64,000 nucleotides of DNA from Apostichopus japonicus (lineage: Eukaryota; Echinodermata; Holothuroidea; Aspidochirotida; Stichopodidae), in the NCBI RefSeq assembly GCF_037975245.1, contig NC_092561.1, positions 1,092,501-1,156,500 of the forward strand, in the 5' to 3' direction. A program made the translations under genes and the position numbers. Below are positions 27,016 through 48,177 of the stretch, piece after piece (within the stretch, counting starts at the first letter, position 1; each line of letters starts with the position of its first letter). Below the pieces are notes generated by a model. That model saw only the letters and a program-made list of their open reading frames with translations. It did not search any database and was not told the DNA's origin.

Positions 27016-27614
27016 CTAGCTGGGAGCGATGATATGTTTTCTCTCATGTCTTCGCTTACTCTCGCGATGCGGGAACCGCATCTCGCAGTATCGACATTTG
27101 AAAGGCTTCTCGCCGGTATGAATCCGTTCGTGTTGGGCTCTGGTGGTCTGATCCCTGAATCCGTTTCCACAGAACCGACACTTGTGAGGTCGATCCCTAC
27201 CGTGGATCATCTCGTGATGTTCCTTGTGTTTGATCTGGAGGAACTCCTTGCGGCAGTAACGACACTTGTGGGATACTTCGTGATTCATCTTTGTCTGGTA
27301 ATCGTCGAAAGGTTTTTGACAGATTCTACAAGCAAACTTTGCAGATTGTGTTTCTATCCTTTTCTGGAGGTAAAGTTTGGAAGCAACTCTGTTAGCATAG
27401 CTGTATTCGCTTTGCAGACTGAAACCGTCCTGTCCTTGAACATGATGATCTACCCCTGCTAAATTTCTGGGAGGCAGATTATTCCTTAGGGTTAAACTGG
27501 AATTGAAGGGATGCACATCATCGGCTTGTCCACGGTGAAACATTTCAGAATGGGAGATCAGCTGCAAGAGACCTGGTTTCTGTTTAGATAATGGCTGAGG
27601 TTGTAGGAGCACTA
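27016..27614 (-). CDS. Alternative terminal exon E: four C2H2 fingers, divergent type
   Basis: Acceptor TTTTTTTTTCATCCAG, phase 1, 599 bp, stop TAG. Four fingers begin CRIC, CRYC, CRFC and CRYC. Fingers 1 and 2 are separated by a single residue (HKC) instead of a TGEKP linker; only the last junction has HTGEKPF. Helix residues read D-Q-T-N, Q-K-H-H, D-T-T-Q and H-E-S-R, unlike the other four exons. Confidence 0.86.

Positions 27615-48177: not shown

What the first reader, a model, noticed from the sequence alone, without database searches (positions are those of the whole stretch)
27016..48177. One NPL-domain gene with five interchangeable zinc-finger 3' exons
Seven shared minus-strand exons encode a nucleoplasmin-like domain plus acidic linker. 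Five separate downstream exons each carry an acceptor in the same phase, a full C2H2 array and a stop. This is the logic of lola and mod(mdg4), where one oligomerisation domain is combined with many DNA-binding tails, but here the shared domain is NPL rather than BTB. I do not know a described locus of this kind. It would let one promoter make a family of chromatin-oligomerising factors with different DNA targets.
Basis: partly seen in the sequence, partly recalled or inferred. Interest (0 to 1): 0.93.

Follow-up and report, generated by a model that had tools for sequence, protein, structure and literature searches.

The report
Nucleoplasmin-like gene with swappable zinc-finger tails
In an animal genome that looks like a sea cucumber's, one gene appears to join a single domain of a ring-forming chromatin family to any of five different DNA-binding tails by alternative splicing, and sister genes on the same chromosome carry still more tails, much as the fly genes lola and mod(mdg4) do with an unrelated domain.

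Summary
Seven minus-strand exons (48177-42868), every intron GT-AG and phase 1, encode a 249-residue head with a full NPL domain (PF17800, 66.5 bits). Downstream on the same strand are five terminal exons, each with a phase-1 acceptor, 3-4 C2H2 fingers and a stop.

The strongest evidence comes from the window's own genome (671.6 Mb; size and scaffold count fit Apostichopus japonicus). I count 30 places with an NPL exon. I read parts of the downstream DNA at 10; all 10 have same-strand C2H2 frames. Three paralogues repeat the one-head, many-tails layout with at least 16, 19 and 8 tails. For 36 of 37 tails the best acceptor of any phase is phase 1 and in frame; at one paralogue the last shared donor is phase 1 too. 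Measurable tail pairs show omega 0.17-0.48; 13 of 37 tails lack a methionine to start from. Tail acceptors are mostly UAG (30 of 37, against 9 of 50 at shared exons).

No transcript could be examined, so splicing is inferred. Six literature searches listed no such locus. A new variant of the lola/mod(mdg4) kind.

The parts
48168..48177 (-). shared exon 1, coding part (M-I-W-G start), donor GTAAGT
47688..47780 (-). shared exon 2, NPL strands (GMTLEPG...SMATMESR)
46183..46335 (-). shared exon 3, NPL core; the exon matched by PF17800 in the genome scan
45652..45756 (-). shared exon 4, end of NPL (VVYLTGY) and start of acidic linker
44920..45021 (-). shared exon 5, acidic linker
43792..43950 (-). 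shared exon 6, acidic linker
42868..42993 (-). shared exon 7, acidic linker; last shared donor ACAG|GTAATT, phase 1
38521..39191 (-). tail A: terminal exon, 3 C2H2 fingers, UAG acceptor
35666..36240 (-). tail B: terminal exon, 3 C2H2 fingers, UAG acceptor
33264..33802 (-). tail C: terminal exon, 4 C2H2 fingers, UAG acceptor; sister of tail D (60% identity over the fingers)
29686..30278 (-). tail D: terminal exon, 4 C2H2 fingers, UAG acceptor; no methionine before the first finger's first histidine
27016..27614 (-). tail E: terminal exon, 4 C2H2 fingers, CAG acceptor; weakest C2H2 scores of the five (zf-C2H2 18.8 bits, under its cut-off; zf-H2C2_2 41.8, over it)

Best explanation
One gene makes a family of chromatin-binding transcription factors. 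Transcription starts upstream of 48177 and runs through the locus; exons 1-7 are spliced together; the phase-1 donor of exon 7 is then joined to one of five competing phase-1 terminal exons, each ending in its own stop. Every product has the same NPL domain, expected to assemble into a small ring (pentamer, perhaps tetramer), an acidic linker, and a different set of 3-4 C2H2 fingers. A pentamer would present 15-20 fingers, and rings of mixed isoforms could read combinations of sites. Shown: exon anatomy, phases, the NPL match, recurrence at paralogous loci, coding selection on tails of those loci. Inferred: the splicing, ring formation in this protein, mixed rings, DNA targets, and that weak UAG acceptors keep several tails in play.
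For: Gene model without a stop and with uniform phase; NPL at 66.5 bits; three paralogous loci with the same layout; of 38 finger frames of 80 residues or more in the four loci, 37 lie on the head's strand; best acceptor phase 1 and in frame in 36 of 37 tails. At the 7.12 Mb locus the exon-4 equivalent (7123490-7123609) ends in a phase-1 donor, the only well-scoring GT in its open frame, and a phase 1-to-1 candidate exon at 7126604-7126999, ending ...PSTS as window exon 7 ends ...PSTST, precedes the tails. Omega 0.17-0.48 in the 5 of 8 tail pairs where it could be computed. 13 of 37 tails, window tail D among them, have no methionine up to the first finger's first histidine, so need an upstream coding exon or a non-ATG start. 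One NPL head before each tail array in the genome scan.
Against: No transcript seen. No poly(A)-signal enrichment after tail stops (AATAAA within 500 nt in 11 of 36, background 0.31; with ATTAAA 21 of 36, background 0.52). No processed retrocopy that would record a junction. No docking-type RNA pairing (29 of 100 shuffles as good). 24 of 37 tails have a methionine before or in the first finger, so independent starts are not excluded for them. Window tails C and D have saturated synonymous sites, so no omega. Head-tail linking exons were modelled only in the window and, in part, at 7.12 Mb. Two opposite-strand finger-like frames exist: window plus 29447-29794 (1 finger, phase-0 best AG) and C1:6112432-6112707 plus (2 fingers). 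PDB matches of the head are weak by single-sequence search (best E 0.0033).
Confidence: 0.86

Rival explanations
1. The tails are separate zinc-finger genes in a tandem cluster, each with its own small 5' exon and promoter; the NPL gene merely lies upstream and uses only the nearest tail.
For: C2H2 genes often cluster (recalled); this genome has large C2H2 clusters elsewhere (C17 1.38-1.77 Mb, C1 19.76-19.94 Mb). 24 of 37 tails have a methionine before or in the first finger. Some NPL heads had only one finger frame in the stretch read.
Against: 37 of 38 finger frames of 80 residues or more in the four loci are on the head's strand, and 36 of 37 have their best acceptor in the phase that the last shared exon needs; 13 of 37 lack a usable methionine; the layout recurs at four loci.
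Confidence: 0.08
2. Head and tails are separate transcription units joined by trans-splicing, as at mod(mdg4), rather than by cis splicing of one long transcript. This differs from the best explanation only in how the junction is made.
For: mod(mdg4) and lola isoforms arise by trans-splicing (PMC4667647, PMC11426971 and PMC1947980, passages); several heads on one chromosome have phase-1 tails.
Against: The tails examined are same-strand and downstream, as cis splicing requires. This is weak evidence: mod(mdg4) tails lie on both strands in D. melanogaster, B. mori and D. plexippus, but on one strand in A. gambiae (PMC4667647, passages).
Confidence: 0.12
3. Most tails are decaying duplicates; only one or two are used.
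For: Local duplication is evident (tails C/D 60%; 6921670/6923380 65-69%).
Against: The five window tails and the 32 others are open frames with phase-1 acceptors, though frames were selected for being open; omega 0.17-0.48 in 5 of 8 pairs, none of them window pairs.
Confidence: 0.06

Closest known systems
lola and mod(mdg4) of Drosophila (BTB head with alternative 3' C2H2 or FLYWCH exons)
   Same: One shared N-terminal oligomerising domain, many alternative C-terminal DNA-binding exons; 17 of 20 lola isoforms carry different C2H2 fingers (PMC11426971, passages). TTK-type BTB heads form hexamers (same passages); NPL domains of other proteins form pentamers (PMC4414354, passages).
   Different: Head is NPL, not BTB; a sea cucumber by genome match; at least four such loci. 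Looks convergent (inference).
Plant HD-tuins (HD2)
   Same: NPL domain, acidic linker, C-terminal C2H2 finger (PMC4414354, passages).
   Different: The passages speak of a C-terminal zinc finger (a single one, from recall) and name three arrangements of NPL proteins, none with alternative tails.
NPL-FKBPs (Drosophila FKBP39)
   Same: Same Pfam NPL domain; NPL structures 4ca9 and 7wim are among the nearest by sequence.
   Different: No FKBP domain in head or tails; this genome has a separate NPL-FKBP gene at C2:2871739 with FKBP_C at C2:2877480.
KRAB- and ZAD-type zinc-finger gene expansions (recalled)
   Same: Lineage expansion of a fixed N-terminal domain with diversified C2H2 arrays.
   Different: There each gene has its own N-terminal exon (recalled); here one head appears to serve many arrays.

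Membership tests
NPL domain (PF17800) | Match above the curated cut-off over the domain | tested here: met
   66.5 bits against 23.4, profile positions 1-92 of 94
NPL domain (PF17800) | Oligomeric ring | not testable with these tools
   The spliced protein is not contiguous in the window, so I sent no structure job; FKBP39 NPL reported as pentamer (PMC4414354, passages) and as tetramer (PMC5225439, title in listing)
lola/mod(mdg4) type locus | Shared 5' exons coding an N-terminal oligomerisation domain | tested here: met
   oligomerisation by homology only
lola/mod(mdg4) type locus | Several terminal exons with one acceptor phase, each with DNA-binding domain and stop | tested here: met
   5 of 5 in the window; best acceptor in phase and frame in 36 of 37 over four loci
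lola/mod(mdg4) type locus | Transcripts joining the shared part to alternative tails | not testable with these tools
   No RNA data; no retrocopy found
lola/mod(mdg4) gene family by descent | BTB domain | tested here: not met
   The only Pfam family in the 249-residue head at E<=0.01 is NPL
HD-tuin | NPL plus one C-terminal C2H2 finger (the single finger is recalled) | tested here: not met
   3-4 fingers per tail and five tails
NPL-FKBP | C-terminal FKBP_C | tested here: not met
   No FKBP_C in head or the five tails; none of the 15 FKBP_C matches of the genome scan is on C1
Nucleoplasmin proper | No domain after the acidic tail | tested here: not met
   C2H2 tails in phase

The most novel reading that the evidence does not exclude
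The NPL-finger loci form an echinoderm regulatory system, arisen independently of insect BTB loci: a few ring-forming heads on one chromosome share a pool of some 48 or more interchangeable finger arrays, a class of weak UAG acceptors serves as the splice signature that keeps tails in competition, and near-identical heads let isoforms from different loci mix in one ring, giving a combinatorial DNA-reading code.
Probability: 0.3. Interest if true: 0.92.

Novelty: new variant of a known kind. Interest (0 to 1): 0.82.

Why it matters
If true, the strategy of one oligomerising head with many DNA-binding tails, known to me only from insect BTB loci, evolved at least twice with unrelated heads that both belong to ring-forming families. 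That makes a testable statement about why such loci exist: ring-forming heads seem to favour sharing. It also adds an arrangement, NPL with C2H2 arrays, to the three described for NPL proteins in 2015 (PMC4414354, passages), and points to dozens of uncharacterised DNA-binding proteins in what is probably a regenerating echinoderm.

Tried and rejected
Docking/selector RNA pairing between the first 400 nt of intron 7 and stretches 40-240 nt upstream of each window tail: not better than shuffles (29 of 100 as good). Inverted repeats in 24000-43000: 14 pairs, 13 of them low-complexity GGA/CCT repeats, one short palindrome. Poly(A) signal enrichment: none. Processed retrocopies of exons 2-7: none; the six matches are the six exons themselves. 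Tree of NPL heads: 25 of 29 rows kept (four short rows dropped), mostly unresolved; the five loci with several tails do not form one group (4 changes, 148 of 500 shuffles as low). A sea-urchin lead (Compass-like, PMC3784565, passages) is a homeodomain locus with alternative 3' exons, and 'nucleoplasmin' does not occur in its text; rejected as a relative.

Choices that affect counts. Which loci were read downstream was not random: C1:7122852 and C14:1031978 were chosen first because one search had shown fingers nearby; the rest were taken among the better head matches. In one search four frames under 80 residues were skipped, and tails were defined as frames on the head's strand. For the UAG count, one tail (7.26M_7238602) was moved from its best AG (CAG type) to the AG homologous to its 7.12M partner (UAG type), and window tail C was taken at the in-frame UAG because its best AG lies outside the frame; with both counted as CAG it is 28 of 37 and p 7e-8 rather than 4e-9. 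By similarity group it is 10 UAG, 4 CAG, 1 mixed of 15; no test was run on groups. In the window alone 4 of 5 tails against 1 of 6 shared exons is not significant (p 0.08). The 50 constitutive acceptors were sought in phase 1 only, some score low and may be wrong, and near-copies are among them. For loci with one or two tails only 4 of 7 frames had an acceptor to count; the other three are cut at a fetch edge. The eleven extra tails were assigned by strand and position alone. The base carried into each tail was taken as G, which is known for the window and assumed for the paralogues; it affects one residue. The contact-residue script missed some fingers, for example one of tail E's four. In some searches the splice-score weights are recalled, and sought phase 1-to-1 exons only; sought all phases.

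Full report
What is there. On the minus strand of the window, seven exons from 48177 to 42868 splice with canonical GT-AG junctions, all in phase 1, into a 748-nt open frame. The 249 residues begin M-I-W-G and match the Pfam nucleoplasmin-like domain PF17800 at 66.5 bits (cut-off 23.4), E 3.5e-18, over residues 2-93; no other family matches at E 0.01. By single-sequence search the nearest solved structures are weak but mostly of the right kind: FKBP43 7wim (E 0.0033), Drosophila FKBP39 4ca9 (0.015) and 8zs0, named nucleoplasmin-like (0.13); an unrelated protein, 1fr3, scores 0.033 between them. The residues after the domain form a linker rich in acidic residues. Downstream on the same strand are five exons at 39191, 36240, 33802, 30278 and 27614, each with a phase-1 acceptor, 68-133 residues before the first finger, then 3, 3, 4, 4 and 4 C2H2 fingers and a stop. 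These 18 fingers and one spurious hit are all that a strict motif finds in six frames; a looser motif adds two short or one-finger frames. In Pfam terms tails A-D score clearly; tail E passes only the zf-H2C2_2 and zf-C2H2_4 cut-offs.

Which genome. The window is C1:1092501-1156500 of a 671,581,487-base assembly in 35 contigs. The 2023 Apostichopus japonicus assembly is 671.60 Mb in 34 scaffolds on 23 chromosomes (PMC10344927, passages). The match makes this species likely; it is an inference, as the assembly is unnamed.

The family. A genome scan with PF17800 gave 26 matches, all over the cut-off; the window's head as query gave 43 exon matches, which I count as 30 places with an exon-3-type match. 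Many paralogues show the same exon arrangement, with an acceptor at codon 4 and another near codon 35. One of the 30, C2:2871739, has an FKBP_C exon about 5.6 kb downstream on the same strand, so it is the ordinary NPL-FKBP gene. All 10 have C2H2 frames on the head's strand: the window 5; C1:7122852 15 and C1:6902135 10; C1:7258551 7; C1:6127617 2; C1:1225636, C1:10039698 and C14:16984031, C14:1031978 and C1:17097149 one each in the stretch read, three of these cut at a fetch edge. One opposite-strand two-finger frame lies at C1:6112432-6112707. A search with one tail's fingers found 6, 4 and 1 more same-strand frames beyond the fetched ends of the 6.90, 7.12 and 7.26 Mb loci, so at least 16, 19 and 8. 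With the window's five that is 48 at four loci. One search shows one NPL head before each array.

Is the head linked in phase at a paralogue. At 7.12 Mb the DNA is held without a gap. The exon-4 equivalent (7123490-7123609, VVYLVGY followed by acidic residues) ends in a phase-1 donor; the two other GTs in its open frame score far lower. Between it and the first tail, an all-phase search found three further candidate exons; one is phase 1-to-1, 7126604-7126999, and ends ...PGPSTS, as window exon 7 ends ...LPSTST. The same stretch is 84% identical over 412 bases to C1:6906361-6906759 at the 6.90 Mb locus. So the phase match between head and tails is seen at two loci; at 6.90 and 7.26 Mb it was not modelled.

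Is it more than chance. In the four loci I scored every AG from 60 nt before the frame to the first finger, in any phase, with a hand-made acceptor score whose weights are recalled, not trained. For 36 of 37 tails the best one is phase 1 and inside the frame. The exception is window tail C, whose best AG is outside the frame. If phases were random and tails independent the chance would be about 7e-18; tails are related (15 similarity groups), so this overstates. Of 38 frames of 80 residues or more, one is on the other strand, with a phase-0 best AG.

Coding selection. NG86 omega was 0.48 for 6921670/6923380, 0.22 for 7154655/7238602 (partners in two different loci, alignable from the first codon after the acceptor), 0.33 for 7160835/7162701, 0.17 for 6925835/6927970 and 0.20 for 6913450/6915005; the last two have dS near 2.8 and are rough. 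The other three of eight pairs, window C/D among them, had saturated synonymous sites. Linker omega is 0.37-0.64 in the four pairs where it could be computed, so constraint there is weaker. In 13 of 37 tails no methionine occurs up to the first histidine of the first finger. The strings of residues at helix positions -1, 2, 3, 6 differ in 37 of 37 tails, several by only one or two residues.

UAG acceptors. Tail acceptors are UAG in 30 of 37 and CAG in 7; acceptors of shared exons 2-4 in NPL paralogues are CAG 38, UAG 9, AAG 3 (Fisher p 4e-9; 7e-8 in the strictest recount). The four countable tails of loci with one or two tails are all CAG (0 of 4 against 30 of 37, p 0.003; small numbers). CAG acceptors are generally favoured over UAG in competition (recalled), so a set of matched weaker sites is what one would expect if several terminal exons must compete. 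This is a lead, not a demonstrated mechanism.

Negative results. No poly(A) signal enrichment, no docking RNA, no retrocopy. The head tree is mostly unresolved; among loci with several tails only the 6.90 and 7.12 Mb heads pair firmly.

How it most likely works. Alternative last exons on one long transcript, giving proteins that share a head of a ring-forming family and differ in DNA-binding tail. NPL domains of FKBP39, Fpr4 and HD2 form pentamers or a dimer of pentamers (PMC4414354, abstract and passages), though one study's title reports a tetramer for FKBP39 (PMC5225439, listing only). In Drosophila the TTK-type BTB domain of lola forms hexamers (PMC11426971, passages). So two unrelated ring-forming heads carry the same locus design. 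This parallel is my inference.

What is known. Edlich-Muth et al. describe three arrangements for NPL proteins: with FKBP, with a C-terminal zinc finger (plant HD-tuins), or with no further domain (PMC4414354, passages). Of eleven literature search calls nine were answered (10, 13, 27, 33, 46, 48, 51, 66, 67; 25 and 47 failed). Six bear on whether such a locus is in print: 0 papers; 15 of 58 listed; 20 of 8,106; 3 of 3; 12 of 16; 12 of 115. No listed title or abstract start describes NPL with C2H2 arrays in an animal or an NPL gene with alternative tails; passages of one domain-shuffling survey (PMC8409312) do not either. Only open-licence papers are held. Absence in print is therefore not proven.

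Verdict.

Noticed in passing
window 43828-44568 (+): 246-residue open frame with a GIY-YIG match just under the cut-off (22.1 bits, cut-off 22.6), spanning intron 5 and part of exon 6 on the other strand; reads like a Penelope-type retroelement relic (label recalled).
   Followed up: partly
window about 43190-43720: Tandem repeat of a roughly 50-base unit (GTAACCACAAAGTAGGTTGCT...) inside intron 6, seen by eye.
   Followed up: no
window about 39450-39840: Long simple-sequence tract (CTC, CAT and CCTCATCCCT repeats) in the intron just before tail A; part of it is complementary to a purine-rich stretch in tail A (39074-39104).
   Followed up: partly
window 48556-49161 (-): 201-residue open frame just upstream of exon 1 that reads like the end of a LINE reverse transcriptase (recalled); no Pfam match.
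   Followed up: partly
window 56164-57546 (-): 460-residue leucine-rich-repeat frame upstream of the NPL gene (LRR_8, 87.8 bits).
   Followed up: no
window 15171-15635 (-): Frame with a match just under the cut-off to CCDC34 (33.9 bits, cut-off 35).
   Followed up: no
L006 (C1:6.90 Mb) and L007 (C1:7.12 Mb): The two heads are 91-94% identical in DNA around exons 2 and 3, while the longest DNA match between their tail arrays is 74% over 179 bases (a 412-base stretch that fits a last shared exon is 84%). Heads look homogenised or recently copied, tails old.
   Followed up: partly
C11:6259642 and C11:9541229: Two NPL places 3.3 Mb apart are 99% identical over 1,865 bases, a recent duplication or an assembly artefact.
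   Followed up: no
C1:6112432-6112707 (+): Two-finger C2H2 frame on the strand opposite to the NPL head at C1:6127617; could be a separate gene or an inverted tail, which would need trans-splicing.
   Followed up: no
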